This document shows, in pieces, positions 9,970 to 44,272 of a stretch of DNA of 64,000 nucleotides; the stretch's first letter is position 1; every line of letters begins with the position of its first letter. This DNA comes from Halobacillus litoralis. Its GTDB lineage: Bacteria; Bacillota; Bacilli; Bacillales; Halobacillaceae. The DNA is taken from positions 2,598,001 to 2,662,000 of the forward strand of contig NZ_CP129016.1 in assembly GCF_020524085.2 (NCBI RefSeq). Direction: 5' to 3'. The notes below the pieces were generated by a model. The model was not told where the DNA came from and made no database searches. It was given only the letters and a program-made list of their open reading frames with translations. The translations under genes were made by a program, and so were the position numbers.

Positions 9970-10524
9970 CTTGGATACTGTGAGTCATACAAAACTAACA
10001 ATGGGTAGATGACCGATTGCAAGGAAAGATAACAGGTTTAAAAAAGAACATAAACTTCTTTTAAGCTTTCTACGGATTTTGATGATGATTAGTTGTAAAC
10101 AGACATTAAAACGACTTAAGTAAAAGTCTCTGCCACGACTTCTCTAAAATATACACGTTTTGGAGGGCAGATACTTCACTCGTCTTTCTCAGAGAATTAA
10201 TTATCCCCCTCATCATAATTTAAATCACCCTTTTTAAAAGGTTCTTTATGGTTTGATACATGGGTATTTCCATGGGGGCTATTTGTCCAACATTTTGATG
10301 TCGACTTCCAATAAATAGCCAGATAATATGATTTTTGCATTTCGCATTTATAAGAGGAAAGGTTTTCAAAGTTATAGATTTCAATTATTGATTTACATCA
10401 TTTTGAAATAATATAATAATTTTTCTTTTAATACCCTTATTTAACTAGTAAAATAGTAGTGTAGCTGATAACTCAATTGAACCCTGAAGGGACAATATTT
10501 ATAAATAATAATGGAGGAGAAATT
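9970..10524. other. 555-bp intergenic stretch before the restriction island
   Basis: No frame with a ribosome binding site was seen. Base composition drops from the GC-richer primosome cassette to AT-rich sequence here, marking the probable left edge of the island. No att-like repeat or tRNA was recognised. Confidence 0.5.
10388..10417 (+). promoter_or_regulatory. putative sigma-A promoter of the GHKL ATPase operon
   Basis: TTGATT (10388-10393), 18 bases, TATAAT (10412-10417), about 105 bases before ATG 10525. The match is good in both boxes but the region is AT-rich, so chance matches are possible. Confidence 0.4.
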
Positions 10525-14551: not shown

Positions 14552-14562
14552 GAGAATTTACA

Positions 14563-16057: not shown

Positions 16058-17434
16058 ATGTCAAAATATGCAATAGACCTCTTTTGTGGCGCAGGGGGTA
16101 TGAGCGAAGGTCTAATTCAATCTGGCTTTCATATATTGTTCTCAAGTGATATAAATGAGGATGTGGAGAGAACATACACTAGAAGACACCATCAGCTTGG
16201 CTTAGAGCAGGGGGTAAACACATATTTCCAAAGAGCAGATATATCTGAATTAACTGGTGAAAATATATTAGGTAGTATACAAAGACTTTCAATTTTTCGT
16301 GGGAGGGATATACCTGAAATAGATGCTATTTTTGGAGGCCCACCTTGCCAGGGATTTAGTTTGGCTGGTCGACGCAATAGAAACGATCCTAGAAATATGT
16401 TGTTTAGAGAGTATGTTAGAGTAATTTCAGAAATAGAACCTAAATATGTGGTAATGGAAAATGTAGAGGGCTTTTTGAATACACGCTTAGATGGTTTTAT
16501 AGGCTTACAAGGAGATGTTTACGCGAACAATAGTTTAGTTACTGAAATTTTATATAGTGAGTTAAACGCAATAGGTTATACGGTATTGCCTACAAGGGTA
16601 ATGGATGCCGCCCATTTCGGAGTTCCACAGAGACGGAGAAGAGCAATTTTTCTTGCATATAAGAATGATGAAACTCCTCCTGAATACCCACTAGGTAATG
16701 AGGAGCAAATTACTGTAGCTGAAGCTATCAGTGACTTAAGAGATGAGGGTGACCTCTTCCCTCAATCAAATTATCAACTAATGTCTCGTGAAGGAAGAAC
16801 CCCAACTATAATTGAAGCCAGTGCAGACGATATTATTTTTGGAGATCCTTTAAATAATTTTAATGATTTTAACAACCATGAAATTTCAAAACATTCTTCT
16901 ATTGTACAAGAGAGATTAAGTTTGTTTAATGAGGGTGAATCTACTGTAGCTCTTATCAAAAGGATCCAATTACAAGGGTTATCTAATATTTCGAAAAACT
17001 ATCCTAACTTGACTAACTTTAGTTTTAAAAAGCAATCCAATTATCAAACTATTGAAAAAATGGAAGAAGCTTTTCGAGACGGGTCCGTACCAGTAGATAT
17101 ATTGAAGATTTTTTTATCCAAGAAAAGCAACAGATATAGATTAGATCGAGAAAGCGTCTCTCCTACCGTTGTCACTTTGCCTGATGATTACATTGTTCCT
17201 TTTGATAATAGGATACCTACAGTAAGAGAGTTAGCAAGGCTTCAAAGTTTTGATGATAGTTTTAGATTTTTGGGTAAGAGGACTACTGGCGGCCCGAGAA
17301 GAAGAGTAGAAGTTCCACAATATACTCAAGTTGGTAACGCAGTACCTCCATTACTCGCTAAAGCAATAGCAGATCAAATAATGATAGCTTTAAATCACGA
17401 AAACATTAATAATGGCCATCTTACCAATATATAG
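16058..17434 (+). CDS. DNA (cytosine-5) methyltransferase
   Basis: The 458-residue protein has the ten-motif 5mC methyltransferase order: DLFCGAGGMSEG (I, AdoMet binding), GGPPCQGFS with catalytic Cys97 (IV), MENVEGF (VI), HFGVPQRRRRAIF (VIII), a long target-recognition region (about 200-390), then TVRELARLQSFDD and VGNAVPPLLAKAI (IX-X). ATG 16058 follows AAAGGAAGTG. It converges on a MvaI/BcnI-type endonuclease gene 17 bases beyond its stop, the usual layout of a type II restriction-modification pair. The recognition site cannot be read from the sequence. Confidence 0.97.
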   Translation: MSKYAIDLFCGAGGMSEGLIQSGFHILFSSDINEDVERTYTRRHHQLGLEQGVNTYFQRADISELTGENILGSIQRLSIFRGRDIPEIDAIFGGPPCQGFSLAGRRNRNDPRNMLFREYVRVISEIEPKYVVMENVEGFLNTRLDGFIGLQGDVYANNSLVTEILYSELNAIGYTVLPTRVMDAAHFGVPQRRRRAIFLAYKNDETPPEYPLGNEEQITVAEAISDLRDEGDLFPQSNYQLMSREGRTPTIIEASADDIIFGDPLNNFNDFNNHEISKHSSIVQERLSLFNEGESTVALIKRIQLQGLSNISKNYPNLTNFSFKKQSNYQTIEKMEEAFRDGSVPVDILKIFLSKKSNRYRLDRESVSPTVVTLPDDYIVPFDNRIPTVRELARLQSFDDSFRFLGKRTTGGPRRRVEVPQYTQVGNAVPPLLAKAIADQIMIALNHENINNGHLTNI

Positions 17435-20096: not shown

Positions 20097-20189
20097 ACTG
20101 TAGTAAACCCGTTAATAACAAATGGTAGAAAATTCGAAGCAACTACTAGTATAAAACCAGAGAATATTTGATGCTCAACAAAACACTGA

Positions 20190-20261
20190 TATATCACACC
20201 TTTCGTACACAACGTTAAAGATATTACACGCTCTCATCTTACGGGCAGCATAATGTGATGA
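20190..20261 (+). repeat. left copy of a 72-bp imperfect direct repeat flanking the five-gene operon
   Basis: By eye it aligns without gaps to 36430-36501 with about three quarters of bases identical. The longest exact block is GTTAAAGATATTACAC, and GGGC.GCAT.ATGT lies further on. The copies lie 389 bases before the first gene and 150 bases after the last. Confidence 0.65.
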
Positions 20262-20578: not shown

Positions 20579-21346
20579 ATGAAATATAAATACCTAATCG
20601 ATCGCCTGAATATGGAATGGATTAATCAGGTTTTTTCTATTTTAACCGATCAAATGGCGGTAGAAAAAATCGTGGAATTATCAGTTGAAGATGGTGTGGA
20701 ATTTGGAAAAAGAAGAGATGTTTTTAATCGGTTAGTAGATTTAGATTTACTAGAAAAATCAAGAATAGGAAAATATAGCTACGTAACATTCACAGAACAG
20801 GGACAAAAGCTTAAGAATATCTACATTAAAAATTCAGCTAAAATACCAATGCTCCTGCATATGTTACATGTTTTAAAATCCTTTGATAAACATTCAAAAA
20901 GATATTTTTCAACCTATTACTTTACTACAAAGATTACAATTGAAGATAAAAAAAGCTCTATAGATCAGTACCAAACACTCATTAAATTGCTAGAAGAAAA
21001 ATTTCCTGAGGAAGAGCATATTACTGGACTGGATAATACGACGATAGGGAAGGCAAATGTCTTTTTACATGAAATAATGGATAATCAATATAATTATCTT
21101 ACATTTGTTGATCCTATCCTTTTTGCTTACGGTCTACAAAAATACATAGAAGCGAAGACTGGGAATAAATTAGGAAACATTCTAATAACAAATAAAGAAA
21201 AGGAGGAATTATCCATCTTATTTTTAGTTAGTCCGGATCAAATCGAACTGTTGGTGGAGAAATCCAATCGTTATACACGGGCATTTGAAACGAGATACAC
21301 AACGACAGGGACGATTCTTAATTGCTTAAAACAAACTGAATTTTAA
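20579..21346 (+). CDS. winged-helix protein, first gene of the five-gene operon
   Basis: The 255-residue protein begins with a winged-helix-like segment (about residues 25-85: MAVEKIVELSVEDGVEFGKRRD, then NRLVDLDLLEKSRIGKYSYVTFTEQG with the wing). The rest is alpha/beta and unrecognised. ATG 20579 follows AAGGGG. The stop is followed at once by AAGGAG of the next gene, so it belongs to the operon. A role as operon regulator or as a DNA-binding subunit of the complex is possible; the inverted repeat just upstream favours autoregulation. It is not obviously BrxA, BrxB or BrxR. Confidence 0.8.
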   Translation: MKYKYLIDRLNMEWINQVFSILTDQMAVEKIVELSVEDGVEFGKRRDVFNRLVDLDLLEKSRIGKYSYVTFTEQGQKLKNIYIKNSAKIPMLLHMLHVLKSFDKHSKRYFSTYYFTTKITIEDKKSSIDQYQTLIKLLEEKFPEEEHITGLDNTTIGKANVFLHEIMDNQYNYLTFVDPILFAYGLQKYIEAKTGNKLGNILITNKEKEELSILFLVSPDQIELLVEKSNRYTRAFETRYTTTGTILNCLKQTEF

Positions 21347-21358
21347 GGAGTGGCTAAC

Positions 21359-24300
21359 TTGAGTAAAGTAGCAGAATTAGAAGAAGTAAGCAAAGTATTG
21401 AGTAAAAATCCGGTTATTAATACAGTTTCATCTGAGGAGCTAATTACATCACCTGATAATGTTGAAAGAAACTATATGAAGCATGCAATGACACATATGT
21501 CATTAGGGAATACCAAGGATTATGAAAAACGTCTATTTCGTTATTTGGTACAAAATAAACGCGCTTTCTCGGGACTTGTTACTGGTGACTTTGGTTTAGG
21601 TAAAACGAGCTTACTCGTATATTTGTGGAAGCAATGCAACGAGAAAGGAATTATGGCAATTCCTCCATTCAGCTGGCGTTCACTAGATGACCTTTTTCAA
21701 GGTGTTTCAAAGTGGATTAGCTATAAATTAGAACAATCCAATACGGAAGCTTTATATGAATTTATTGAAATTGCTGACAACTTTACTAAAAAAAGTATGA
21801 AAAAAGAAGTTAATTTACTAGTAAAGGCTGGAATGGACAGAGAGAGTGCAATTGAGCATATGGAGTTGAAGATACGTGAAGGAACGTATCGTCTTGATCG
21901 CACTATTAGTGAATTAATTCAGTTTCTTGATCGAGTTACTACTTTCCTTTTACGTCACGGTTATGAAGGATTAATGGTTTTTACTGATGAGCTTCAAATT
22001 ACATTAAGCGAACTTGCTCCCGAAAAGGTATTCCAATATATGTTTGAGCTTGCCAATCAAACAATGGACAGACAAGGGAAGTTTGGTATTATGGTTGGCC
22101 TGCCTTTAAACTCTTATGTTCAAATGCAACAGGTGAAATCAGATGCCCTTGATCGATTTGGGGGACAAAAGATGCTGATTGATTTATCAAAAATGTACAC
22201 AGCAGACTTTGCTACTGATCTATGGGAAAAGTATGCCAGTTATTTAAAATTTGAAAAAATATCAGGTGATATTATTGATGAACATGCGCTTAAATCATTA
22301 GGCCAACTGACCGATTGTACTCGTAAAGATATTGGGAATGGACCACGTTCAGTTATTTCAGCGTTTAATACGATTATTCAACATTTCGAGAGTACTAGTT
22401 ATAAGTACACTGTAACCAACCTAGTAGAAGATATTCTTAAAGGTAATATTTTACTAGGTGAACGTTCGAAATATATACCAAAAGTGAAAAACTTATTGCA
22501 AAAAGTAGAGAATGATCCTGATTATAAACAATTCATTTATGTACTAGCTGGCTTTCCGCAAGGTTGTAAGCATGAAGTCCTTTCTTATTATGACTTGTTT
22601 AACAATAAAACAGAGAAACTGTTAGCTGAATGGCTTGGTAATGAAATACGTCAAAGTAGAATTGAAGGATACCGGCTAACGATGTTAGACGAAGTGCAGT
22701 CTGCACCAGAAGGTTTTTTTGAACAAGCCATTAAAGACTTCTTCCGCTTCTACCAAGCATCAGATAAAGAGTACCAAGAGAAGGCTATTAAATCATTTAA
22801 TACTTCGGTTGTTCCTGAGTTATTAACAGAGAAAGGACAACTAAAATGGAACTGTTTGTTCGAGCAAGTTACAGAGGATCAGATCGAATTTCAGCTTGTA
22901 TCACCAAACGTTTATGCAACAGATTTAGGCGGGACGTACGATAAAGTTAAAACTCGTTATCCAAATCGTCATTTGCATATCATTACGCAAAGTACGTTAA
23001 CGAAACCAAGATTATTTGATACAGATGTAGGGGATCAACAAAATGCTTATGTTGGTCAGTGGGTATTTTATTTAGATTTATCTGGAGAAAAAAGAAATGC
23101 GATTATTAAGCAAGACCGTTCCAATCCTTGTTATTTGTTCACGGTAAACATGAAGGAAAAAATAGAAGATGCCCTTCCGATGCTATCGAATTTAGTTCCA
23201 ATTGAAGCAATCGATGCGCAGTTAGCTTTAAATCTAATCTATTACTTAACAAAAACAACTGATGTACCACCAAGTGAGCAACAAGAGCTAGAGTATGTGT
23301 TAAAAGAGATTATTGATGCAACCATAACTACTTTGTTTAATCAAAACATGAAAAAAGTCAGTCATTCTTCTATTGAATTGCGTAATCATGGTAGAAGTGT
23401 TCTAGTAGAGCTTTTTGAACATATGTGTGAGGAACGTTTTCCGAATTACCACACATTAATGGTAGGAAAATTGAATCAACGCATGAAATATTTTAAAATT
23501 TTCTTAGAAAATGAAAATATTCAACTTTCGGTGAAGCGTGGTACTCAACCTATAGTAGAAAACTATAAAAGACTTTCTACTACAGATAAACGTGAAAAGG
23601 TAATGAGCAAATTTAATATCAATACTGTTTCACCATTTGAACAACTCATGCAGCACTTCCCTGCACTTCTTCAAGTTGGTGATGACGGTCACTTATACGC
23701 ACGAATTCATCCAGCGGAACAGCTATGCTTAGAAACCATTCAGAATAGTGAGCTAGAAATTTATGAAAACAACAAACAATGTCAAGCTGCTAAGTTGTTC
23801 GACATATCGGATAAGTTAAAAGAATTGGGATATATCGCGGATGAGATTAAGTATATTTATTTGTTTGGTGCTTATCGTAAGCTATTCCAGTATGAAGAAC
23901 GAAAACAAATGCTATATATCAAGCCACTTACGATTGAAGAGTGGAAAGTAACATTACAAGACAAACTAAACTACATTATCCAATTGAAGGATGAACTAGA
24001 TTTAGTAAATGAAAAAGTAAAATTAGATACAAATGCCATTCAAGCAGGTATCGAGCATCTAAGTGATGAGAACATGTATGAAGATCTTTCTAAAACAGTG
24101 AGAGAAGAAGAGCAAGTTCTACAACAGAAAATGAGTCTTTATATTAATAACAAGATTAATATTTTAGGAGATAAGCTTGATAAATCTAGTCGTATCATAA
24201 CAGAACTAGTAAATAATATGGAAGAGGTAACCGCTACTGATGATAATGAAATGCAAAGGTGGTATCAAAGCGGTGAAGATATACGTGATAAGTTAAGAGC

Positions 24301-25288
24301 TCTTCAAACGAAATACACAGATATTTATAATGCGAAGTTACGTCTTTCTAAGACACAACCAAATTGTTTTGGTATGAGTAATAATGGTATAGATTATTTC
24401 GTCGAGGTGTCTTCTACAGTAGAGGGACTTCACAAAGATTGGGATAGCTTAAAGGTTGAACGGAAAAATCTGGAGACAAACGTAGAGACATGGCTAGGAT
24501 GGAAAAGTTATTTTAATGCAAGATTAGAAATACGGGAGTTAATTGAGCGTCTAGAAAAATTAGGACTATCTCATTTAATTGAAGAAATTAATAAAATTGA
24601 TCAAGACCTTGACGTGGCTTGGGATAAAGCAACTATTATCTCCCATGAAACATGGCTAAACAGGCTGAAAAAGGTACGTATTGTAATTACAAGCGAAATT
24701 AATAAATCACGCGATCAGTTTAAATCAGAGAAGGAAAGTTATCAAAAGTTGTTGGATGAAAGTAAAGTTGGAGTAAGGTTGAAAACACAATTTAACGAAA
24801 CAGAGCAATCTAAGAGCTATAAAAGCTTAAAGGAAGAATTTATAGAAACCATTGAAGAGCAAGTGAAAAAATTTCTGAAGCAAACGGATCGTTTAGAGCA
24901 ACGATTAACGTATCTTAATGAGATATTGGAAGTTGATGTAACTAATATCGAGGATGAAGTCTTCTCGGTAAGCTCTACGTTATTTAGAGTGCAAGCAGAT
25001 CTTCAAAAAAACTATACTATTAATGACCTTCATCCATTAACGAAAATACATAGTCAGATTCGTAATGCTCGTGAAAGTGTGGAAGGTGCTGTTCAAAAAG
25101 GCGTATTGAATAAAAAAGAAGAGGAATTGTTGAAAGCAATAAATTCTTCTTCTGTTTCACTTGAGGAATTAGTCCTAAATTACGCTGATAAAAATGACTC
25201 ATTAAACCTTGAAGAAGTTTTACATCTTATCACAAACTTGTTTAAAAAAAATCACGTAAACATTCGAATTGAAAAAGGGGAGAATTAA
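21359..25288 (+). CDS. BrxC/PglY-like large P-loop ATPase
   Basis: The 1309-residue protein has an N-terminal AAA-type ATPase: GLVTGDFGLGKTSLLVYLW (Walker A near 76-84), LMVFTDELQ (Walker B near 204-212), then a sensor-like IMVGLPLNSY. From about residue 860 to the end it is coiled coil and helical. Size, N-terminal ATPase and long helical tail resemble the BrxC/PglY ATPases of BREX and Pgl systems, though I cannot quantify this. TTG 21359 lies 8 bases after AAGGAG; GTG 21350 overlaps that site and is less likely. The next gene starts 4 bases after the stop. It is probably the structural ATPase core of the system. Confidence 0.85.
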   Translation: MSKVAELEEVSKVLSKNPVINTVSSEELITSPDNVERNYMKHAMTHMSLGNTKDYEKRLFRYLVQNKRAFSGLVTGDFGLGKTSLLVYLWKQCNEKGIMAIPPFSWRSLDDLFQGVSKWISYKLEQSNTEALYEFIEIADNFTKKSMKKEVNLLVKAGMDRESAIEHMELKIREGTYRLDRTISELIQFLDRVTTFLLRHGYEGLMVFTDELQITLSELAPEKVFQYMFELANQTMDRQGKFGIMVGLPLNSYVQMQQVKSDALDRFGGQKMLIDLSKMYTADFATDLWEKYASYLKFEKISGDIIDEHALKSLGQLTDCTRKDIGNGPRSVISAFNTIIQHFESTSYKYTVTNLVEDILKGNILLGERSKYIPKVKNLLQKVENDPDYKQFIYVLAGFPQGCKHEVLSYYDLFNNKTEKLLAEWLGNEIRQSRIEGYRLTMLDEVQSAPEGFFEQAIKDFFRFYQASDKEYQEKAIKSFNTSVVPELLTEKGQLKWNCLFEQVTEDQIEFQLVSPNVYATDLGGTYDKVKTRYPNRHLHIITQSTLTKPRLFDTDVGDQQNAYVGQWVFYLDLSGEKRNAIIKQDRSNPCYLFTVNMKEKIEDALPMLSNLVPIEAIDAQLALNLIYYLTKTTDVPPSEQQELEYVLKEIIDATITTLFNQNMKKVSHSSIELRNHGRSVLVELFEHMCEERFPNYHTLMVGKLNQRMKYFKIFLENENIQLSVKRGTQPIVENYKRLSTTDKREKVMSKFNINTVSPFEQLMQHFPALLQVGDDGHLYARIHPAEQLCLETIQNSELEIYENNKQCQAAKLFDISDKLKELGYIADEIKYIYLFGAYRKLFQYEERKQMLYIKPLTIEEWKVTLQDKLNYIIQLKDELDLVNEKVKLDTNAIQAGIEHLSDENMYEDLSKTVREEEQVLQQKMSLYINNKINILGDKLDKSSRIITELVNNMEEVTATDDNEMQRWYQSGEDIRDKLRALQTKYTDIYNAKLRLSKTQPNCFGMSNNGIDYFVEVSSTVEGLHKDWDSLKVERKNLETNVETWLGWKSYFNARLEIRELIERLEKLGLSHLIEEINKIDQDLDVAWDKATIISHETWLNRLKKVRIVITSEINKSRDQFKSEKESYQKLLDESKVGVRLKTQFNETEQSKSYKSLKEEFIETIEEQVKKFLKQTDRLEQRLTYLNEILEVDVTNIEDEVFSVSSTLFRVQADLQKNYTINDLHPLTKIHSQIRNARESVEGAVQKGVLNKKEEELLKAINSSSVSLEELVLNYADKNDSLNLEEVLHLITNLFKKNHVNIRIEKGEN

Positions 25289-25291
25289 CAG

Positions 25292-28200
25292 ATGGCAATT
25301 GTTCATCAGGCTGGAAGTACTGCTTCCGATGGCGAGAAACTGTTAATAAGAGAGCTAAAAGCATCGCTACCAGATGATTTTCATATCTATCATAATTTTG
25401 AGATTCCATCATCGAATGGACAATTTTTTGAATATGATGTTGTTGTGGTAGCCCCCCATGCGATTTATGTTATTGAAGATAAATACTGGCACGGAGAAAT
25501 AGCTGGTAATGATGCGAAAATAACACTTGGAGCTTCTATCAAGAACAATCCTATTGGACAAGTATCTAGACAGGCAAAAATATTAAAATCGTATCTAGCT
25601 AATAAAGATCCATTTTTATCTAGTATTTGGATAGAGGATGTGATCCATTTTAGCGGACGTAATGTGCGAATTTCTGTTAAAGGGAATAGTAAAAAGAAGA
25701 TGCACACGCTAAAATCAATCAAAAGCTTCATCCAATCACCAGATAAAATAAGTGGGAGTGTCCGTAATCCTGCTTTTACTACGAAATTACAAGAGCGGGC
25801 TTTGCAGTTATTCAGTATCTTTGACCCGATCAGGAATAATGAGAAAGGGTTTCGTGAGTTCAAAGTTAAGGACGATAAAATTGCGCAAACAGAGTTATAC
25901 AATGAATATATTGTGTATCAGCCGGATATTAGGAGTAAGCCAGAATTTCTTTTGCGTGAATTTTTTATGGATCCATATCTTTCTGGTGATGACCAAAAGC
26001 GTCAAATGCATTTAATCAAAAATGATTACCAGACCTTATATCAATTAGAAGATGTTAAAGGAATTGTGCAGCCAAAAACAGGATTTGTACCAGACGGGGA
26101 TGAAAGTCGTTTTTGTGTAGTTTATCCCGCTCCTAAAGGAACACCGTTAGTAGAATGGTTTTTAACCGATAGCCAGATAGGTGAATCTAAAACACGAGCA
26201 CTTTTCGTTCAAGCTTTGAACATCTTAAAAGAGGTTCATAAGCACGGTATTATTCATCGTAACTTAACATCTTCGAATATTTTAGTGGATAGCGAAGATC
26301 AGTTATTCTTGCAGAATTTTGAGTTTTCCCGTGTAAGAGACGCTTCAACGAAATCAACCATAATGACGAAAACATTAGCGGAAAGTTTGGATGATCGATA
26401 TACACCATTACGCGTCCGGGGTGATTTTTCACTAGCGAATGAGAGTTCTGATCTCTATTCGTTAGCGAGGATCTTTTATGATTTACTTTTGGGTTCTGAT
26501 GAAAACACAATTGAAACAACGAATGGATTATTACCAGAGCTTCCTAATGTAAAAGACCAAGAACTTTTGAGAGTGATTCAAAAGATGGGACATGATCACT
26601 CTAATCAATGGTACGAATATGCATCTGAAGCTTTGGAAGATTTGAAAAAAGATGAAACAAAACCTTCAAGTTCATCCGAAAGTGTCGTAGACGATAAGGT
26701 TATTTATGAAGCGGGAAAAGATATTGAAGGACGCTTTTTGATTGAAGAACGACTTGGTCAAGGTGGGACGAGTAACGTATATAAAGCGTTTGTCATTCCA
26801 AGACAGGAAAGCATGGCTATAAAAGTGATGAAACGTAATGTTGCAAACGAAAATGTAGCATTAGACGAATACCATCGTTTGAAAACGCTTGATCACCCAA
26901 ATATCGCAAAAGCCTATGATGTCGATAGTATTTATAACGGCAGTCAAATAGTTTTAAAAATGGAATACATACCTGGTAAGTCGATTCAGCAGCTAATCGA
27001 TGAAGGTGCAGACTTTTCAATTACGAAGGTAATCAACTGGGCGAAGGAAATATTAGATGCATTATGTTACTTGCAGGATCGTCCTGAGCCGATCGTTCAT
27101 GCTGATATTAAGCCAGGTAACATCATGGTTAATGATGGAAATATTGTATTAATTGATTTTAACATTAGTAGAAAACAAGATGACTCTAGATTATTAGGGG
27201 CAACTCCTAGGTACTCTGCACCTGATGTGCATACGATTGGTATAGATGCAAGTATTGATACTTTTTCATTAGGGGTGCTTTTGTATGAGCTTCTTAGTAA
27301 TGGAGAGCATCCTTATCAAAATGGACAGCCAGATCTTGGGGTTGAGCCAACACCTTTAACTGATTATCGTAAAAGTATTTCACAAGAATTGAATTCTTGG
27401 ATTGGGAAAGCATGTGCTTCATTAAAACAAGATCGATTTAAATCTCCGAAGGAAATGCTAGATGAATTAAATGAAATTCATAAAATATTTAAAGATGTAA
27501 AGATTACAGAGCCAAAAATAGATTTGAAAAATATTACTCCTTTATCTCCTAGCATCAATAAAAATTATTGTAATCATTTAATTCCTTATTACCAGAGCCT
27601 TTATAGCCAAAGCGCAATTAGTAATAAAGGGACAAGAGGCTTAGATAGGTTTGCAGAAGCAAATTATATTGATACACGTCTTGATCAAAAGCTACGTCAA
27701 TCGATTATCGATGGAAAATATCAGCTTGTGATCATCACAGGGAATGCAGGGGATGGAAAGACAGCTTTCATTCAACGTCTTGAAAATATACTGCTAAAAA
27801 ATGGTGGTAAAATTACGGCTGAAAAAGGAAATGGGAAAGAAATTGAATTTCAGCAAGTAAAACTAATCACCAATTATGACGGTTCACAGGATGAAGGAGA
27901 AGTGTTAAACAAGAAAGTATTAGAAGACTTCTTCCAACCTTTTACAACAGACAATGCATTTGAACAAAGCTTTGAAGATAAAAAAGAGGTTCGTTTAATT
28001 GCCATCAATGAAGGGCGTTTAATGGAATTTCTCGATGATTCCAAATATCATCACTTGTTTCAAACTGTAGAAGGCTATCTTCGTAAGCGAGTGAATGATG
28101 TAGGTGAGTTTGCACTTGTCAATTTGAATTGGAGGTCCGTCGTTGCTAGAACAGAAGAAGAGCCCTCGATTGTCGAGAAACTAATGAATCAATTTGCAGA

Positions 28201-29332
28201 CCTTAATGTCATTAAAGATTGTGATGTATGTACGGATGAATTTATCTGTCCGACATGCTTTAACATAAAAACATTGAATGATGAAACGATTGGTCCACAA
28301 GTGAAGGAGAACATTCGTCGTGTATTTGAGTTGGTTCATTTACGGAAAAAATTCCACATTACGATGCGTGATATCCGATCTGCATTGTCATATATAATTT
28401 ACGGATCAAAATCTAGCAAAGAAATGAAACAACTTATGAAAGATGGATCGTTAAAAAGCTTACAAGAAATAAGCAATATGTATTATTACAATTCTATGTT
28501 TAATGCAGGTAATAGTAGTGACCGTTTGATGAAAGAACTACAGGATATTGATGTATCAAAGGTGGCAATTCCACAGATTGAGAAAAAGCTGTCTCAAACA
28601 AGTAGTAGTGACCAAAAAATGTATGCAACTAAAGACTTTGATGGGGTTGAAAAAGAAGCAAACGTACTTGATGCTTTTTATAAGCAAAAGCCGCTCGAAC
28701 AAGAGCAGTTAACCAACCTTTATCGTGTCAAGCAATTCAAGCACTTTGTTCAAATGAGCAAACGAAAATATTTCTTTGAGTCTTTAAATCAGGATTCTAG
28801 ATTACCATATCCTTCCTTTAAACGTTTTTCAAAGTTATTTGAGGATAATGAAGACTTAGTGGAAGTGCGTGACCAAATTCTGCAGGCTATTTCATTTACT
28901 GAAGGAATCCTTAAACCGCTAAAAGGCTCTTTAAGTTTACGTGAAAGTAAATGGAGGACAGAAGATTTACTCAGTATGCGCGTGTATCCAAAGGATGACT
29001 TCAAGCTAGAAATGTTAACACTTGGAGATGGATTCGATTTTATTGAATACGAGCCAGATGCGTTTAAGTTGGTGTATAAACCTAATAAAAGGATTAGCTT
29101 TGAGGTAACACTAGATTTATATGAGCTATTTCATAAAGTGAATCAGGGCTATGTACCAACTGCTTATGAACTGCGTGGTGCTTTTATGAACCTATCTATT
29201 TTTAAGAGACAGCTGTTAAGTCAGCGATATGAAGAGATTATTTTATCGGATCATACTGGTAGATATATTGCCAAAAAAGATGGAAAGAAATTGGTGCTGG
29301 TAACGATTGAGGAAGGAGGTTCTGAACAGTGA
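25292..29332 (+). CDS. NERD nuclease-pseudokinase-kinase-NTPase fusion (PglW-like plus DptF-like)
   Basis: Four parts in 1346 residues. About 1-150: NERD nuclease-related domain (SDGEKLLIRELKASLPDDF, EYDVVVVAPHAIYVIEDKYW). About 200-450: a kinase-like domain with HRNLTSSNI in place of HRD and NFEF for DFG, likely inactive. About 480-735: a second kinase with GQGGTSNVYKA, AIKVM, HADIKPGNIM (near 600), and DFN in place of DFG. About 770-1346: an NTPase domain with ITGNAGDGKTAF (near 815) and a CDVC...CPTC cysteine pair. NERD plus kinase is the PglW layout of Pgl/BREX type 2; the C-terminal third resembles DptF of Dnd restriction (tentative). ATG 25292 is 4 bases after the preceding gene. The stop overlaps the next start (GTGA). 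Confidence 0.85.
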   Translation: MAIVHQAGSTASDGEKLLIRELKASLPDDFHIYHNFEIPSSNGQFFEYDVVVVAPHAIYVIEDKYWHGEIAGNDAKITLGASIKNNPIGQVSRQAKILKSYLANKDPFLSSIWIEDVIHFSGRNVRISVKGNSKKKMHTLKSIKSFIQSPDKISGSVRNPAFTTKLQERALQLFSIFDPIRNNEKGFREFKVKDDKIAQTELYNEYIVYQPDIRSKPEFLLREFFMDPYLSGDDQKRQMHLIKNDYQTLYQLEDVKGIVQPKTGFVPDGDESRFCVVYPAPKGTPLVEWFLTDSQIGESKTRALFVQALNILKEVHKHGIIHRNLTSSNILVDSEDQLFLQNFEFSRVRDASTKSTIMTKTLAESLDDRYTPLRVRGDFSLANESSDLYSLARIFYDLLLGSDENTIETTNGLLPELPNVKDQELLRVIQKMGHDHSNQWYEYASEALEDLKKDETKPSSSSESVVDDKVIYEAGKDIEGRFLIEERLGQGGTSNVYKAFVIPRQESMAIKVMKRNVANENVALDEYHRLKTLDHPNIAKAYDVDSIYNGSQIVLKMEYIPGKSIQQLIDEGADFSITKVINWAKEILDALCYLQDRPEPIVHADIKPGNIMVNDGNIVLIDFNISRKQDDSRLLGATPRYSAPDVHTIGIDASIDTFSLGVLLYELLSNGEHPYQNGQPDLGVEPTPLTDYRKSISQELNSWIGKACASLKQDRFKSPKEMLDELNEIHKIFKDVKITEPKIDLKNITPLSPSINKNYCNHLIPYYQSLYSQSAISNKGTRGLDRFAEANYIDTRLDQKLRQSIIDGKYQLVIITGNAGDGKTAFIQRLENILLKNGGKITAEKGNGKEIEFQQVKLITNYDGSQDEGEVLNKKVLEDFFQPFTTDNAFEQSFEDKKEVRLIAINEGRLMEFLDDSKYHHLFQTVEGYLRKRVNDVGEFALVNLNWRSVVARTEEEPSIVEKLMNQFADLNVIKDCDVCTDEFICPTCFNIKTLNDETIGPQVKENIRRVFELVHLRKKFHITMRDIRSALSYIIYGSKSSKEMKQLMKDGSLKSLQEISNMYYYNSMFNAGNSSDRLMKELQDIDVSKVAIPQIEKKLSQTSSSDQKMYATKDFDGVEKEANVLDAFYKQKPLEQEQLTNLYRVKQFKHFVQMSKRKYFFESLNQDSRLPYPSFKRFSKLFEDNEDLVEVRDQILQAISFTEGILKPLKGSLSLRESKWRTEDLLSMRVYPKDDFKLEMLTLGDGFDFIEYEPDAFKLVYKPNKRISFEVTLDLYELFHKVNQGYVPTAYELRGAFMNLSIFKRQLLSQRYEEIILSDHTGRYIAKKDGKKLVLVTIEEGGSEQ

Positions 29333-30942
29333 AAACCCTTTTAAAAAACCACAAAGAATATTACGTTAATAAAGTATTAAAGGTGCAGGCAAAAACGATT
29401 AATAAAGACCGTATTATGATCAACCTTCTGCCGCTCCTTAAATTTAATGGGAAAACGCAATCCCCACTAGTAAATAATGTTGACGAATTGTTGGAGTACG
29501 TTTGGAATAATGAGCTACTTTTTGATGGTTTTTCCGATCATAAGGAGCTCGTAGAAAAATGGTTGAAGAATGATTACATGGATATGCTTCATAAGGAAAG
29601 TGAGAAAAAAGAAAGTAAGTTTGTTTCCCTATTACCCCTTTCCCTGAACGCATATAAAGCTAGTAATACTAAGAATCGAGATGATTACGGTGGTAGTGAA
29701 GAGCTTTGGCACTTACTTTATAAGGCAGATGAAGAACGAAAAGTGCAAAACCAAGATCTCATTATCCAAAAACTAACGGATTTCTTATCCAATGGTTACA
29801 ACCGAGAACTCGATCAAGTGGAGAATGATGACCAACAGGATTTATCAACTTGGTTAATTTCTAGCATTACCAACCAATTAAGCAATGACCAAGACAATGA
29901 TAAAGAAAGGATACACTCGGAGGATCCTCTTCTTTGTATGACACAAGCAAGATTATTAGCAGATGATATCGAGCGTTTACTTGCATACCAACATGTTATG
30001 TCAAGAACAGCATTAATAGAGTCATTATCCCAAGTGATGATGTTACATATTGGATTATATGTCTTGCGAGCAGCTCAAATGCTACCCGTGATGGTCAAAA
30101 AAAAGACCATGAATATAGATTGTGGTTGTTCTAGGACGAATAAATTAACGGATATGAATGCTTGCAAGTATCAACCATTCTTTCAAATGGACATGATGCA
30201 AAATTATTCCTCTCATCTCTCTAAAATATCTAGACGAAATATAGAGATTCATGAGCAACAGCTATCCTTATTTGTAGAATCTATGTTCTATATTCGTAAG
30301 AAGCTAGATTTCCTTGAGTATTTGGATGATGACAAAAACTACAGTTTAGAAGAAGTATTGCAATTTGATCTTTCTACTGAAAAGTTAAAGGTAGAAAATT
30401 ACTTCAAGGTAAGGTTTGATGGACTTAAAGAGTTTGTAGATGATGTTGAGAAAGATCCAGAAGAAGATTACTTTACTAATTATGTAGCAGTGATAAATCG
30501 TGAATATAACAAATATTATGTAGCATTTTTCAAACGGTTGATTAGTTCAGCTTTTTCTAAAAATGATGAGCGCGGTATTTTACGTCAAGCTGGCTCACAT
30601 AAAAAATACACAATTGGAAGTCAATTGTTAGATACGATAATTCACCTTGCTATGGTTGAAAAAAAAGGATATTCCTTTGAAACGAAGGTTCTGAGGCTCG
30701 ATCAATTTTTGAACTGGATTCGGGATCGTTACGGATTTTATGTGGATGACATTATTCCAGGATATGAATCATCACAAGCCTTTCATTCACTACGTCAAAG
30801 CAAAAATTACTTTACGACTAAGCTTCAAGAAATAGGTTATTATCAGGCGTTAAGTGATGCCTATAATACACAATGGTTAATCGCCCGATACGATGTGAAA
30901 GGAGGCAAACGTGATGCAACAGCAGGAAAGGCAACATCTTGA
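29329..30942 (+). CDS. Cys-cluster protein, possibly DptG-like
   Basis: GTG 29329 overlaps the preceding stop as GTGA, with GGAGG upstream. The 537-residue protein is mostly helical. Near residue 261 lies DCGCSRTNKLTDMNAC, a likely metal-binding cysteine cluster, followed by YQPFFQMDMMQNYSSHLS. The C-terminal part (about 440-530) looks like a winged helix. Size, position between a P-loop NTPase and a HerA-type giant, and the cysteine cluster recall DptG of the phosphorothioation-dependent restriction set DptFGH; this is a context-based suggestion only. The 3' end overlaps the next gene by 29 bases. Confidence 0.75.
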   Translation: MKTLLKNHKEYYVNKVLKVQAKTINKDRIMINLLPLLKFNGKTQSPLVNNVDELLEYVWNNELLFDGFSDHKELVEKWLKNDYMDMLHKESEKKESKFVSLLPLSLNAYKASNTKNRDDYGGSEELWHLLYKADEERKVQNQDLIIQKLTDFLSNGYNRELDQVENDDQQDLSTWLISSITNQLSNDQDNDKERIHSEDPLLCMTQARLLADDIERLLAYQHVMSRTALIESLSQVMMLHIGLYVLRAAQMLPVMVKKKTMNIDCGCSRTNKLTDMNACKYQPFFQMDMMQNYSSHLSKISRRNIEIHEQQLSLFVESMFYIRKKLDFLEYLDDDKNYSLEEVLQFDLSTEKLKVENYFKVRFDGLKEFVDDVEKDPEEDYFTNYVAVINREYNKYYVAFFKRLISSAFSKNDERGILRQAGSHKKYTIGSQLLDTIIHLAMVEKKGYSFETKVLRLDQFLNWIRDRYGFYVDDIIPGYESSQAFHSLRQSKNYFTTKLQEIGYYQALSDAYNTQWLIARYDVKGGKRDATAGKATS

Positions 30943-33900
30943 TGAACGTATTGGACAATTTGTAGCAAATAATTTAAAAGAAATGCTTATTAATAAAGAG
31001 CCTGGTCACTGTGCACAAGTGACGGATTTAAGCATCAATGTGATGGAAAAAGCAAACCAAGAGTTAAATGAGATTGGTGCTGGAAAGTTTGAAAGCTATA
31101 TACTTGCTGGAAATGATGAAGAAAACGTAGAAAGTGGAAAAATTCATGCAACAAAGCTAGTGGAACGTAGAAATGCAGAAGAAAAAGTGGTGATTGTTTT
31201 TATTCCCCATAATTTAAAAACAGCAGCTGAAGATTCTTTTGACATAGCGACATTTGAACCGATCTCTTTTTATTACGTTTATGATAGTGTGAAAGAGAAC
31301 TTAAAGCATGAAGTTATTCAACAATATTTGGGGAGTGAACGCACGGCCTTTGAACAGGCAATTGTGACAATCGAAAGAAACTGGAAGATACCTACTGCAC
31401 TAGACTGGTCGCTCTATTTCCTATCCCTTATAAACCAGGGGTTTTCAGCAGAATCCATAGGGCGTAACCTACCTTATGTATATTTATTTCCTGATAATAA
31501 ATTATTATCCAGTGGATCATTAACATCAAGAGTAGAAGAAAATATAAAGACGATGGATGGTTTAAGAAGTGTTTCGAAACCACTCCAGAACCGTGTAGAA
31601 GGTATTAATACAAAGAACAAGGAAATAAAAACGATTTTATTAAAGTTATTAAAGCAGTACGCTATTAGCTTTAATTTTGACCAATGGATCCAAGAAACAT
31701 TAATCGATCCCAAATTGATGGAAAAGCTAAACTTTAATAACTTGAAACTTGAAGCACTAACCGATAATTTAGGCAGTTTCCAGATTGATCAAATCAAAGG
31801 ACCTGCGTTAAAAAATAAGGATAGTGTTGTGGAGTTAACGATAGGTACAGGGAGTCACTTTTCAATTTATTATACAGTTGAACCTACCCCGCCTCGTTGT
31901 GAAGATTGGATGAAAATGCAGGTACATTTGATTGATGCAACGGCAGAAGAAGATTACACAAATGTGCATACTATCTCGTCTTCGAAAAAGCCAAACACAA
32001 ATAAAATGAAACAAGTGAAAAAAGTAACTCCGAACCAGCTTCAAAAGCTAAAATCAGTAGAGCCTGGTACGTATAAGATTGGAGTCAGAGCGTTATCAGA
32101 TGATAATTTTATTATTGCTGAATCGGTTTCCAACCAAGCGTTTGTACTTGTGAAAGAAGATGAAGAAGAGGTACCACAAGAGATCGGAACAGTTTTGTCA
32201 GGTGGTCAAGATATCCTGTTTGAAGGCAAAACTACTAGTATTGAACAAGATCAGCCGTTTATTTATAATAGCAATGATCTTGAGTTCGGGTTTGAACCCA
32301 ATGAAGAAGGGCAAAACCTCCAAGCACCAATGAAAGTGTACAACGAAAAAGAAAATGTTATGTACAAGTTGTCTACAAACCTATTTTTACACAAGATACA
32401 TGAAGTGTGGCTGAAAAATCCAGGGTATGTAGGGGCCATTGAACTTAAAAGATCTAATAGATTGACAGGCAAAAATTTAGAAGAATCGTTAGTCTTTGAG
32501 GATCAAGCTGAGCTTTCTGATGATTCTGTATCAATGTTGAAAAATTTTCTTAGGCTTAGGAAACAATTCTTTGAATCAATATTAGATATTGGACCATATC
32601 ACTGGGATCAAATTATTAGTTTTGAAGAAGAGCTATTGTTAGATAATGCTTGGTCATATGTGGAGAGCTATCAGAATATTATCGAAAAACTTTTGGCTCA
32701 GGAATCAGAAGACATGCAAGAATTACTAAACAGACTTCGCATGATTGACTTAATTGGTGTCAACGACATGAATGGGGAAACAATTTATGTCATGACACCA
32801 ACACACCCTTTAAATCTTTCATGGCTTTTATCTTATGAAGAGATAGGAGAACGATGGATTCGACAATCCGCCTTATTAGATGATAAAGCAAGTGAAATTA
32901 AAAAAATAAAAGAAATCTTACATGAGCAATCAAGTCTTCATTTTCCGTTTATCATGAAGGATAAGCATAACTCTTGGTTTGTAAATACAGATAATATTGG
33001 CAGTAGCTGGAGTGTATTTATACCATTAGAAAAAATGATGGAGGAGTCTTATTCACAGCAAATTAATTCTCTTCTAAAGTTAAATCAAGGGTTTAAACGA
33101 AAGGTGAAGTTTCCTGTTCCAAAAATAAACCAACACATTCTTCAGTATTTAGAAAGACGCCCTTATTTAAGTGTATTAACAATAAATGTATTTGAACCAG
33201 GTGATGGTGCTGAGTTAGTGCAATTATTGAAACAATTATATAAGTCGTTAGAAGACGATAAATACCAAGTGTTCGCTGACTTACGTATCAAGCTTCACTT
33301 GTTTACTGATGAAGAAGAAAACCTTGATCAACTAGCAAAAGCAATAGATTCCCTCATGTCTGCAGGGGAAAATAAGAGAGTTGATAGCTTTCAGGAGAAG
33401 TTGACTATGGAAGCGGAAAATCCATTGTTCCCACTTATCTCTTATTCGAAGCACTTGAAAAAAGATTTTCTACAATCACCAGGGCAGTTTGAATCAAACA
33501 TATCAATTCTTTATCAAATGTTGACGGTTGAATCAGGATTTGTAACAGCAGAAGAAGCAAAATTGCATCGTTCTTCTTATTTTAAAGGATTAAACTATGA
33601 GCTAACGACACGTACTGGTGGCCGAAGTGATCGTGAACATGATTCGAGTTGGAAGAAGTTTATATCAACAAAATATGAACTTAAAGACTCTGGTAATATA
33701 CGTTTGAATCGAATCATTGATGCATTCACTGGTCTAACTATGTTTGATGAGCCGAATAATCGAAGAGACCTACCTGCAATAGAAGTTAACATTAGTCCAA
33801 ACAAAAAGTTGGAATTAGAAATAATTCATAACACTTCCGATTGGGTGCTATTGCTCGATGAATATCTGGGAGTAGATTTTCTTGATCGACCGGCATCAGG

Positions 33901-36280
33901 AAGAGATCGCTATCATTTGATTGATTACATCCCTGGTGAAGTATTAGAAAAAAGCGATGTCTATGTCTCAACCAATCAATTGGTTGAGATAGAAAATATG
34001 GTGCAGCCATTAGCTAAGCAATTAGATCTACATCTGGAAGAGGGTGCGGAGCGTGGTATCATTGATAGCTTAAATGCCATCTCTGGACGACTTGTGATGA
34101 AATTATCATCAAGTGAAAGTCAAGTTAAAGGTGCAATGGGTATGGCTCTTGCACGTCTTTATTTAAATGAGATGAACTGTCTTGATGGGAAGATGAAAGT
34201 AATCATTCTTCCTTTAGATGCCCATAAAGATTGGTTCCTAAAAGAACGAAAACATTTGTCATCGCAAAAAATGACCGACATTTTAATGATTGCGTGTAAT
34301 GTGGAGACAAGAGAAATTACTTTCAATCTAATTGAAGTAAAATGGCGTTCTAATCTTCCAGGTGGAAATATTTCTAGTGCAGAAGACTTTAGAAACTCAA
34401 TCAATGCGCAGTTAGAGAATAGTAAACAATTGCTGAAGCAAAAATTCCAACAGTATTCGTTGAATGAAGCTACTAATCTATATCGTGCAAGAGAGCTTTC
34501 GAAAATTCTTCAGTATTACTTGGATAGATCGTATCGATTTAAAAGTATTGATGAAGAATCGTATGTTAGCTTCTCACAGTTCTTTAGCCAATTGAGTGAT
34601 CTAGATAATCCTTATTCACTCATGTTTAAAAAACATGCATTGTTATTTGTGTTGAGCGAACAAGATATTGATACAACAAATATTGGTGGAGTAAGTTATC
34701 ACGTTATAGGAAAACCACATGTTGAAGAATATTTAAATAATGCTAAAAAGCAATTTAGTAATGATACACAAATATTCTCGCATGATTACTTAAAACAGCG
34801 CACTACCTTCTTTTTCTCACGTACAAAGACTGAAGCGAGTGTGGATGAAGAGGAGTCCGAGAAAGAGTCAAGGGAACAAGAAAATGATTCTAAGCAAGAA
34901 CCTACCATAGACGAATCAAAAAACATTGATCATGATTCAGCAGAAAAAAAACCGGAAGAAGAGGAAGGTGTTTATTTTGATCTTGATTTAGGTGATAACT
35001 TTCGTGAAGAAGAGAATGAATCTGTTGATAATGAGGAAGGTGTATCTGAAACATCAAAGGAAGTAATTTCTTGTGATGAGCCTATCGCATTATTAGGAGA
35101 GCATCATATAACTAATCAATATGGCATCCTTGGAAAGTTAGCTTCTACTGGCGATACAGTTGGATTGGACTTGGATGGAACGTCGACCATTAGCTTATTT
35201 GGTGTGCAAGGAAGCGGAAAAAGTTACACGGTTGGAACCATTCTTGAGATGGCAACCAAACAATTTAACAAAGCGAATAAGTTACCTGCCCCCTTAGCTA
35301 GTGTTGTTTTTCACTATAGTAAATCGGAAAACTACCAACCAGAGTTTACTAGTATTAAGGAAGCGAACGCTAATTCTGATGAACTGGAACGCTTAAAACA
35401 AGAGTATGGTGTGAAACCAGATGGAATTGAAGATGTCATGATCATCACGCCAAAAGATCGTGTGGAAGAGCGTAAAGAGGAATATAAAAACATTGATGTA
35501 CGACCCTTACAATTTAGTACAAGAGAATTAAATGTAGAGGATTGGAATTTCCTTATGAATACTGGGGATAGCTCTGCTCTGTATTTACGCCAATTAAAAT
35601 CAGTCTTGAAAGAATATCGTAGAAATCTAACACTAGAAAACATCCGTAAGGGGGTACAGGAAGAAGATTTTGAAGATCGACCTAGAAGATTACTCGAGCA
35701 GCGAATGAAATTCGTAGAAGAATATATTAATGATCGAGCAAAAATTGGTGATATTTTACGGCCAGGGAGAGTTGTTATTGTAGATATTAGAGATGAATTT
35801 ATTGAAGAGGATGAGGCATTAGGCTTATTTATGGTTCTACTCCGAATTTTCTCAGATGTGAAATATAAAAACCAATTGTTTAATAAAATGATTGTTTTTG
35901 ATGAAGCACATAAGTACATGAAGGATCAAAGTTTAATGGGCAATGTAGTAGAAGTCATTCGCGAAATGCGCCATAAAGGTGTTTCGATGTTAATCGCATC
36001 CCAAAACCCACCTTCTGTACCAAAAGAAATAATAGAGCTTTCTAATATCGTTGTATTGCACAAATTTAATGCACCAGCATGGTTAAAGCACATCCAGAAG
36101 ACATTAACTGCAACTGAGAGTCTGCAAGCAAAGCAACTTAACCAATTAAAAGCTGGTGAAGCGTATGTTTGGGCAAGTAAATCAACCCATTCTGTGTTCG
36201 AAAAGCAACCACAGAAGGTTCAACTGAGGCCAAGAATAACGATGCATGGTGGTGCTACTAAGAAAGCTACGGTGAACTAA
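30914..36280 (+). CDS. giant protein with C-terminal HerA/DndH-like ATPase
   Basis: The 1788-residue protein has an N-terminal 1300 residues with no motif that I recognise except a nuclease-like core near 1120-1160 (IACNVETREITFNLIEVKWRS, an E..EVK pattern of the PD-(D/E)xK type). A very acidic linker lies near 1310-1380. The C-terminal HerA/FtsK-class ATPase has SLFGVQGSGKSYT (Walker A near 1430), VVIVDIRDEF, MIVFDEAHKYM (Walker B near 1660), MLIASQNPPSVP and a final LKAGEAYVW. DndH/DptH of Dnd restriction is similarly large with a HerA-type C-terminus. ATG 30914 has AGGAGG 8 bases upstream. It is the last gene of the operon. The Glu-x-Lys pair suggests it is the DNA-cutting subunit (inference). 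Confidence 0.85.
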   Translation: MQQQERQHLDERIGQFVANNLKEMLINKEPGHCAQVTDLSINVMEKANQELNEIGAGKFESYILAGNDEENVESGKIHATKLVERRNAEEKVVIVFIPHNLKTAAEDSFDIATFEPISFYYVYDSVKENLKHEVIQQYLGSERTAFEQAIVTIERNWKIPTALDWSLYFLSLINQGFSAESIGRNLPYVYLFPDNKLLSSGSLTSRVEENIKTMDGLRSVSKPLQNRVEGINTKNKEIKTILLKLLKQYAISFNFDQWIQETLIDPKLMEKLNFNNLKLEALTDNLGSFQIDQIKGPALKNKDSVVELTIGTGSHFSIYYTVEPTPPRCEDWMKMQVHLIDATAEEDYTNVHTISSSKKPNTNKMKQVKKVTPNQLQKLKSVEPGTYKIGVRALSDDNFIIAESVSNQAFVLVKEDEEEVPQEIGTVLSGGQDILFEGKTTSIEQDQPFIYNSNDLEFGFEPNEEGQNLQAPMKVYNEKENVMYKLSTNLFLHKIHEVWLKNPGYVGAIELKRSNRLTGKNLEESLVFEDQAELSDDSVSMLKNFLRLRKQFFESILDIGPYHWDQIISFEEELLLDNAWSYVESYQNIIEKLLAQESEDMQELLNRLRMIDLIGVNDMNGETIYVMTPTHPLNLSWLLSYEEIGERWIRQSALLDDKASEIKKIKEILHEQSSLHFPFIMKDKHNSWFVNTDNIGSSWSVFIPLEKMMEESYSQQINSLLKLNQGFKRKVKFPVPKINQHILQYLERRPYLSVLTINVFEPGDGAELVQLLKQLYKSLEDDKYQVFADLRIKLHLFTDEEENLDQLAKAIDSLMSAGENKRVDSFQEKLTMEAENPLFPLISYSKHLKKDFLQSPGQFESNISILYQMLTVESGFVTAEEAKLHRSSYFKGLNYELTTRTGGRSDREHDSSWKKFISTKYELKDSGNIRLNRIIDAFTGLTMFDEPNNRRDLPAIEVNISPNKKLELEIIHNTSDWVLLLDEYLGVDFLDRPASGRDRYHLIDYIPGEVLEKSDVYVSTNQLVEIENMVQPLAKQLDLHLEEGAERGIIDSLNAISGRLVMKLSSSESQVKGAMGMALARLYLNEMNCLDGKMKVIILPLDAHKDWFLKERKHLSSQKMTDILMIACNVETREITFNLIEVKWRSNLPGGNISSAEDFRNSINAQLENSKQLLKQKFQQYSLNEATNLYRARELSKILQYYLDRSYRFKSIDEESYVSFSQFFSQLSDLDNPYSLMFKKHALLFVLSEQDIDTTNIGGVSYHVIGKPHVEEYLNNAKKQFSNDTQIFSHDYLKQRTTFFFSRTKTEASVDEEESEKESREQENDSKQEPTIDESKNIDHDSAEKKPEEEEGVYFDLDLGDNFREEENESVDNEEGVSETSKEVISCDEPIALLGEHHITNQYGILGKLASTGDTVGLDLDGTSTISLFGVQGSGKSYTVGTILEMATKQFNKANKLPAPLASVVFHYSKSENYQPEFTSIKEANANSDELERLKQEYGVKPDGIEDVMIITPKDRVEERKEEYKNIDVRPLQFSTRELNVEDWNFLMNTGDSSALYLRQLKSVLKEYRRNLTLENIRKGVQEEDFEDRPRRLLEQRMKFVEEYINDRAKIGDILRPGRVVIVDIRDEFIEEDEALGLFMVLLRIFSDVKYKNQLFNKMIVFDEAHKYMKDQSLMGNVVEVIREMRHKGVSMLIASQNPPSVPKEIIELSNIVVLHKFNAPAWLKHIQKTLTATESLQAKQLNQLKAGEAYVWASKSTHSVFEKQPQKVQLRPRITMHGGATKKATVN

Positions 36281-36429
36281 ACTATTTTTATTAGGATAAG
36301 GAGATAACTCCTTGTTCCAGAGATTATAGTCTTAATTTATAAAATTGCTAACATTTTGCTAACGCAATCTCGTGAAAAACGGTAAAATTCCGTTAAGGAT
36401 GTTACAGACAGAAATTAGCAGAACCTTTA

Positions 36430-36501
36430 TATACCACATTTTTCGCAACCAATGTTAAAGATATTACACACTTTCACTATAAGGGCGGCATGATGTAAGT
36501 A
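36430..36501 (+). repeat. right copy of the 72-bp imperfect direct repeat
   Basis: It aligns gap-free with 20190-20261, sharing TTCG, GTTAAAGATATTACAC and GGGC.GCAT.ATGT, in the same orientation. Nothing like it was noticed elsewhere in the window. Confidence 0.65.
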
Positions 36502-42982: not shown

Positions 42983-43119
42983 CCTTATGGTGTAGAAATA
43001 TTTCGGTGGACATAAAATTGTGAAAATTACCTGTCTTAACTTGTAGTATTGCACAATGCATTGGTATAATTTGGTTGTGTTACTTTGTTGAATTTGTCGT
43101 AGTTCGGGAGGAGAGTCTT

Positions 43120-44253: not shown

Positions 44254-44272
44254 AAGATGGAAGGTGATTTTT

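What the first reader, a model, noticed from the sequence alone, without database searches (positions are those of the whole stretch)
20579..36280. Five-gene, 15.7-kb operon mixing BREX/Pgl-like and Dnd-restriction-like parts
Seen: five tightly coupled genes (gaps or overlaps: 12, 3, -4, -29 bases) encoding a winged-helix protein, a 1309-aa ATPase with an N-terminal P-loop and coiled-coil tail, a NERD-pseudokinase-kinase-NTPase fusion, a 537-aa Cys-cluster protein and a 1788-aa protein with a HerA/DndH-like ATPase. Known: NERD-kinase (PglW) and PglY/BrxC ATPases belong to Pgl/BREX; DptF, DptG and DptH restrict DNA lacking phosphorothioates. Inference: this is a hybrid defence system. It lacks PglX, PglZ, BrxL and dndA-E here, so it has no evident modification arm and must discriminate invaders otherwise, perhaps through kinase signalling or by abortive infection.
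Basis: partly seen in the sequence, partly recalled or inferred. Interest (0 to 1): 0.92.

Follow-up and report, generated by a model that had tools for sequence, protein, structure and literature searches.

The report
MADS/DndFGH effector with BREX-like front
A bacterium carries a five-gene probable anti-phage operon that joins a DNA-cutting machine, known from two other defence systems, to a DNA-sensing pair from a third, with no gene in the operon that would mark the cell's own DNA.

The parts
20579..21346 (+). Gene 1: SspB/BrxA-like multi-wHTH DNA-binding protein, 255 aa
21350..25288 (+). Gene 2: BrxC/SspC-type AAA+ ATPase with long coiled-coil tail, 1312/1309 aa
   Evidence: 18 of 32 alignment members match PF10923 BrxC_BrxD at E<=0.1, and the three tested singly exceed its cut-off; the window protein itself does not match it (best Pfam AAA_22, E 0.004)
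21569..22369 (+). Gene 2 ATPase region: Walker A GDFGLGKT (79-86), Walker B DE (213-214), GPR motif (331-333)
   Evidence: conserved in the 32-sequence alignment; letters
25292..29332 (+). Gene 3: MAD6-like / DndF with N-terminal NERD and tandem kinase domains
   Evidence: NF047741 2.3e-135, 452.5 bits vs cut-off 460
25325..25651 (+). NERD nuclease domain, D49, E62-x-K64
   Evidence: Pfam stretch 12-120; D49 and K64 invariant, E62 nearly so in 15 MAD6 proteins
25889..26671 (+). Pseudokinase (HRN; NFE in place of DFG); borders approximate
26714..27484 (+). Kinase with K511, D605, N610, D622 kept (HAD, DFN)
27689..29311 (+). DndF-type P-loop core: Walker A GNAGDGKT (817-824), Asn Walker B (IAINEG, N906), C977/C980/C986 insert
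   Evidence: hhalign to two DndFGH-like F sets 98.4 and 97.8% over 271-281 columns
29329..30942 (+). Gene 4: MAD7-like / DndG-like DNA-binding protein, 537 aa
30911..36280 (+). Gene 5: MAD8-like / DndH-like protein, 1789/1788 aa
   Evidence: NF047742 4.7e-39, 134.4 bits vs 175; PADLOC mad8 8.9e-41
34202..34420 (+). PD-(D/E)xK nuclease-type motif of gene 5: D1123, E1142-V-K1144, Q1167 (motif assigned by eye)
   Evidence: invariant in 15 of 15 MAD8 proteins
35096..36277 (+). HerA-type ATPase of gene 5: GVQGSGKS (1431-1438), FDEAHK (1663-1668), Q1698
   Evidence: HerA structures by profile, 8xau E 1.5e-4
20179..20256 (+). Left copy of a direct repeat that brackets the operon
   Evidence: 76% identical to 36419-36496; only these two places in the genome at E<=0.001
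36419..36496 (+). Right copy of the direct repeat

Best explanation
A modification-free restriction-type defence system. Genes 1 and 2 (SspB/BrxA-like multi-wHTH protein plus BrxC-type AAA+ ATPase) form an ATP-dependent DNA-binding complex that recognises invading DNA. They stand where MADS has its MAD2 methyltransferase and MAD5 specificity subunit. They license a DndFGH/MAD6-7-8 effector: MAD7/DndG contacts DNA, MAD8/DndH threads DNA through its HerA ATPase and cuts with its PD-(D/E)xK nuclease, and MAD6/DndF gates the complex through its nucleotide-binding core and kinase, with NERD as a second nuclease. Shown here: gene content, recurring order, predicted folds of genes 1 and 4, kept catalytic residues, exchange of front modules. 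Inferred: complex formation, the trigger, cleavage, defence.
Against: No experiment. All three MADS scores lie under NCBI's cut-offs. MAD8-DndH support by sequence is weak. Foldseek alone gave no significant hit for the MAD7 model (best E 0.59); 7exx surfaced only on re-alignment of its candidates. For gene 1, Foldseek E was only 0.01, shared by an unrelated methyltransferase. Gene 1 shows no sequence match to two DUF4007-type proteins (<=7.2%) or DpdG, and gene 2 only 9-24.5% to their partner ATPases. What spares host DNA is unexplained.
Confidence: 0.5

Rival explanations
1. Abortive infection by kinase signalling: infection activates the MAD6-like kinase (PglW-like), which shuts the cell down; the nuclease arm is secondary.
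For: NERD-pseudokinase-kinase architecture shared with PglW; kinase catalytic residues kept; a PP2C phosphatase gene follows MAD8 in the Bacteroides locus L035.
Against: REase and HerA motifs are invariant in 15 of 15 MAD8 proteins; the kinase is an add-on: the DndFGH-like F proteins of L048/L049 are 604 and 612 aa, and L048's shows no kinase match in Pfam.
Confidence: 0.2
2. A modification arm acts in trans: the nearby C5 methyltransferase (16058-17434) or a DndC-like sulfurtransferase on the second contig marks self DNA, and this is an ordinary modification-sensing system.
For: C5 MTase 3.1 kb upstream of the operon; 430-aa PAPS-reductase-family protein on C2, 32% identical to a Salmonella DndC over 64% of its length.
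Against: The C5 MTase sits beside an MvaI/BcnI-type restriction gene, its likely partner, and tblastn found no relative of it in L007 or about 19 kb either side. The DndC-like gene lies among phage-like genes (judged from the ORF list). No MAD2 ortholog (best 29.6 bits vs cut-off 720; 10 of 14 controls also ring), and the only TGT is a full-length high-scoring one.
Confidence: 0.12
3. Interception of plasmids or conjugative DNA rather than phage: the HerA motor catches DNA during transfer or segregation, as proposed for HerA/FtsK capture systems (PMC10853773).
For: HerA-type ATPase at the C-terminus of gene 5; the MAD8 C-terminus matches the HerA gene of the Haloplanus locus (blastp 1.4e-15).
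Against: No direct evidence; MADS, which shares the triad, is named anti-phage (NCBIfam names; listed with DNA-targeting phage defences in PMC12904381).
Confidence: 0.13
4. A decayed MADS that lost its methylation arm and is no longer functional.
For: MAD2 and MAD5 are absent from the window, MAD2 from the genome.
Confidence: 0.05

Closest known systems
MADS (mad1-8; Maestri et al. 2024, not held here; cited in PMC12904381)
   Same: MAD6-MAD7-MAD8 triad in the same order as canonical loci
   Different: No MAD2 methyltransferase or MAD5 specificity subunit in the window; genes 1-2 in their place, with no match to mad1-mad5 models; all three triad scores under NCBIfam cut-offs
DndFGH (Rakesh, Aravind, Krishnan 2024, PMC10853773; abstract, sections 11, 20, 21, 25 and passages seen)
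   Same: F-G-H order, F core with Asn Walker B and a Cys insert, G fold, H with REase then HerA; the paper describes some DndF with NERD plus inactive/active kinases, and DndFGH as standalone without a modification module
   Different: Triad in one operon with an SspB/BrxC-like pair; no dnd_assoc model listed; the paper's text has no BREX, BrxC, DUF4007, DUF6079 or MADS
BREX-Related Capture (BRC) systems (Rakesh and Krishnan 2026, PMC12839542; abstract, sections 34, 36 and passages seen)
   Same: BrxA-like triple-wHTH, BrxC-like ATPase and a HerA motor together; L032 (Haloplanus) resembles one (TGT, pair, HerA; PglZ not confirmed)
   Different: Window has no PglZ, STAND, GNAT or TGT in the operon, and has the full F-G-H triad with nuclease and kinase
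Ssp (SspBCDE) and type 4 BREX
   Same: Gene 1 has the SspB fold; large AAA+ ATPase partner
   Different: No PAPS reductase (SspD) and no SspE-like gene in the operon
Pgl / type 2 BREX (PglW, PglY)
   Same: NERD-pseudokinase-kinase N-terminus
   Different: PglW score 168.7 vs cut-off 990; C-terminal half is a DndF-type P-loop core; no PglX or PglZ in the operon

Membership tests
MADS | MAD2 methyltransferase and MAD5 S subunit | tested here: not met
   tblastn none in window; genome-wide MAD2 best 29.6 bits vs 720; MAD5 not searched genome-wide
MADS | MAD6, MAD7, MAD8 over curated cut-offs | tested here: not met
   452.5/460, 303.8/410, 134.4/175 bits: homologous but below
DndFGH | Three adjacent genes F-G-H; G 450-500 aa, H about 1700 aa (sizes from PMC10853773) | tested here: met
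   1346, 537, 1789 aa in that order; G is somewhat longer than the range given
DndFGH | DndF core: canonical Walker A, Asn in Walker B | tested here: met
   GNAGDGKT and N906 of IAINEG, invariant positions in 15 of 15; feature described in PMC10853773 section 20
DndFGH | DndG fold | tested here: met
DndFGH | DndH: REase followed by HerA/FtsK ATPase | tested here: met
   motifs; no structure model of gene 5 was made and the N-terminal DndH domains were not tested
DndFGH | Match to NCBIfam DptFGH models (dnd_assoc) | tested here: inconclusive
   none listed at E<=1; no DptH over cut-off in 200 genomes to compare with
BREX | PglZ and BrxX/PglX with BrxC | tested here: not met
   none among the five genes; not searched genome-wide
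BREX | BrxC-type ATPase | tested here: inconclusive
   PF10923 in 18 of 32 members, not in the window member; a relative (L046) scores 19.5 bits to NCBIfam BrxC, cut-off 400
BRC | PglZ and STAND NTPase with HerA | tested here: not met
   no such separate genes in the operon
Ssp | SspB fold | tested here: met
Ssp | SspD PAPS reductase beside SspB/SspC | tested here: not met
   genome has two PF01507 matches, neither near the operon
Dpd | Genes 1/2 homologous to DpdG/DpdH | tested here: inconclusive
   hhalign 0.1% (gene 1 set-DpdG) and 0.4% (gene 2 set-DpdH), with only two sequences each on the Dpd side

The most novel reading that the evidence does not exclude
The DndFGH/MAD6-7-8 triad is a general plug-in effector. 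Its front end is exchangeable between a type I-like methyltransferase + S module (MADS) and an SspB/BrxC-type module, as here. In the latter the system tells self from non-self without any DNA modification, and the unknown restriction step of MADS is the DndH-type nuclease of MAD8.
Probability: 0.4. Interest if true: 0.82.

Novelty: new variant of a known kind. Interest (0 to 1): 0.68.

Why it matters
A 2026 review counts MADS among systems that restrict by unknown mechanisms (PMC12904381, passages). Reading MAD6-7-8 as a DndFGH-type triad names a candidate nuclease with three residues to test. Finding the same triad behind two unrelated front ends suggests which half recognises and which half kills, and offers a natural experiment on how a nuclease without a modification partner spares its host. 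The 2024 analysis proposed modification-independent DndFGH (section 25); this operon supplies a candidate recognition module for one branch.

Tried and rejected
Dpd: the gene 1/2-like pair sits beside TGT/DpdA-like genes in L032, L044 and L046 (L046's is 24.8 bits against a cut-off of 26.3), so I suspected DpdG/DpdH. Profile comparison with two classic pairs (DpdH over cut-off; DpdG taken as the gene before it) gave <=0.4%: dropped as homology, kept as context. PDB sequence search with gene 2 listed helical and coiled-coil chains, no ATPase. Viral contigs: no gene 2 relative, two MAD7 loci. Phages: no gene 2 match. Plasmids: no nucleotide match; gene 2 protein matches in two records. E. coli genomes were not searched. 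TIGR03237 in 200 genomes of the phylum of L009's genome: none over cut-off. Rfam: two sub-threshold hits. Promoter and terminator scans: fewer sites than shuffles. Class-wide sample: MAD7 in 4 of 398 genomes (own, one strong, two weak); gene 2 in 7 of 398 at E<=0.001, of which six (E 1.2e-5 to 7.6e-4) match only the coiled-coil region. A first tree run timed out; FastTree and a fast IQ-TREE AU test replaced it.

Rows dropped: from 38 gene-2 hits, P0001 (the window itself), P0009, P0022, P0031, P0034, P0037, P0038 left out of A2 (32 rows with the window); 29 of 41 MAD7 hits plus the window in A1; 27 of 71 gene-1 hits plus the window and L007 in A7. L014 (contig cut) and L047 are not in the trees. 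Profiles were built partly from the loci they were run on (10 MAD2, 9 MAD5, 10 MAD6, 10 MAD8, 4 gene-1 seeds), so those seeds match by construction; independent support is the leave-one-out test, blastp, the NCBIfam scan of L012 and the non-seed loci.

Paper searches bearing on novelty. 'DndFGH' with 'MADS' gave one paper, a review that lists them apart; 'DndFGH' with 'BrxC' gave four, of which two were seen in part, the other two only as listings. Supplements and subscription papers were not read.

Full report
Observation. Five same-strand ORFs at 20579-36280 with the reported lengths and spacings. The operon has GC 0.351 against 0.410 for the rest of the window. Upstream lie a HATPase protein, an Mrr-type helicase, a C5 methyltransferase and an MvaI/BcnI-type restriction gene; the two genes just downstream are a PLP-dependent enzyme and a sugar dehydrogenase family protein. 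Gene 2 was not found in 198 related genomes at E<=1e-10, so the operon is probably acquired.

Genes 3-5 are MAD6-7-8-like. NCBIfam: MADS6 2.3e-135, MADS7 2.9e-90, MADS8 4.7e-39, each under its cut-off; PADLOC agrees. Genes 1 and 2 match no mad1-mad5 model at E<=1. 17 show MAD2 and MAD5 by profile (part of them are seeds of that profile), L017 shows MAD5 by profile and MAD2 by tblastn; in the Bacillus locus L012 both exceed NCBI's cut-offs. L014's contig ends just upstream. L007, Ktedonobacter robiniae, has neither: it has a 284-aa relative of gene 1 (found by a profile without it, 3e-31) and a 1287-aa relative of gene 2 (23% identical, E 1.4e-92).

Exchange of front modules. In the concatenated tree L007's triad is sister to the loci L006, L010 and L011, all from Chloroflexota-type genomes by their titles (support 1.000; MAD6 0.958, MAD7 0.509, MAD8 0.999). 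L006 and L010 have MAD2+MAD5 directly upstream, L011 further upstream behind other ORFs. The window is a long separate branch whose place differs between genes. Forcing window and L007 together costs 95 log units (AU p 0.00029). On an unrooted tree this needs at least two changes of front module. Long-branch effects on the window's position remain possible.

Modification. No MAD2 ortholog, one high-scoring TGT and two PAPS-reductase-family genes, neither near. One of these, on a 53-kb contig with phage-like genes, is DndC-like: it weakens 'no modification arm' for the cell, not for the operon. PglZ and MAD5 were not searched genome-wide.

Mechanism and literature. The best reading, rivals and tests are given in their sections. 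Neither Rakesh paper names MADS. The 2026 paper reports BrxA/BrxC-like genes with HerA, PglZ and TGT, not with DndFGH, in the passages seen. A link made in the MADS paper itself or in supplements cannot be excluded.

Noticed in passing
window 20179-20256 and 36419-36496: A 78-nt direct repeat (76%) brackets the operon closely (322 nt before gene 1, 138 nt after gene 5); only these two places in the genome match at E<=0.001. Possible old insertion boundary or paired regulatory element.
   Followed up: partly
window 43075-46054: Two adjacent low-GC genes (392 and 596 aa); the second matches the MAD8 profile weakly (2.3e-6), perhaps a HerA-type motor with a partner: a second defence pair.
   Followed up: no
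window 10477-15495: HATPase protein, Mrr-type nuclease-helicase and a 310-aa protein in a row: another possible defence operon. The first ORF holds a 9-nt tandem repeat near 11928-12038.
   Followed up: no
L071 8029-9321 (second contig of the window's genome): DndC-like sulfurtransferase-family gene among phage-like genes.
   Followed up: partly
L035 19127-19792: A PP2C phosphatase gene follows mad8 in Bacteroides finegoldii; L013 and L016 have unidentified genes of similar size there. A possible off switch for the MAD6 kinase.
   Followed up: no
L011 2095-5685: In a Thermoflexus MAG four ORFs (145, 140, 282 aa and a 593-aa Schlafen/AlbA_2 protein) sit between MAD5 and MAD6.
   Followed up: no
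L049 851-15305: DUF4007-like protein, 1158-aa ATPase, a protein with an SGGAGS motif that looks like a PAPS reductase, then a DndFGH-like triad: an apparent Ssp-type front with a DndFGH-type back (the PAPS label rests on the motif only).
   Followed up: partly
L044 and L045 (genome G783): Two convergent copies of the gene 1/2-like pair side by side.
   Followed up: no
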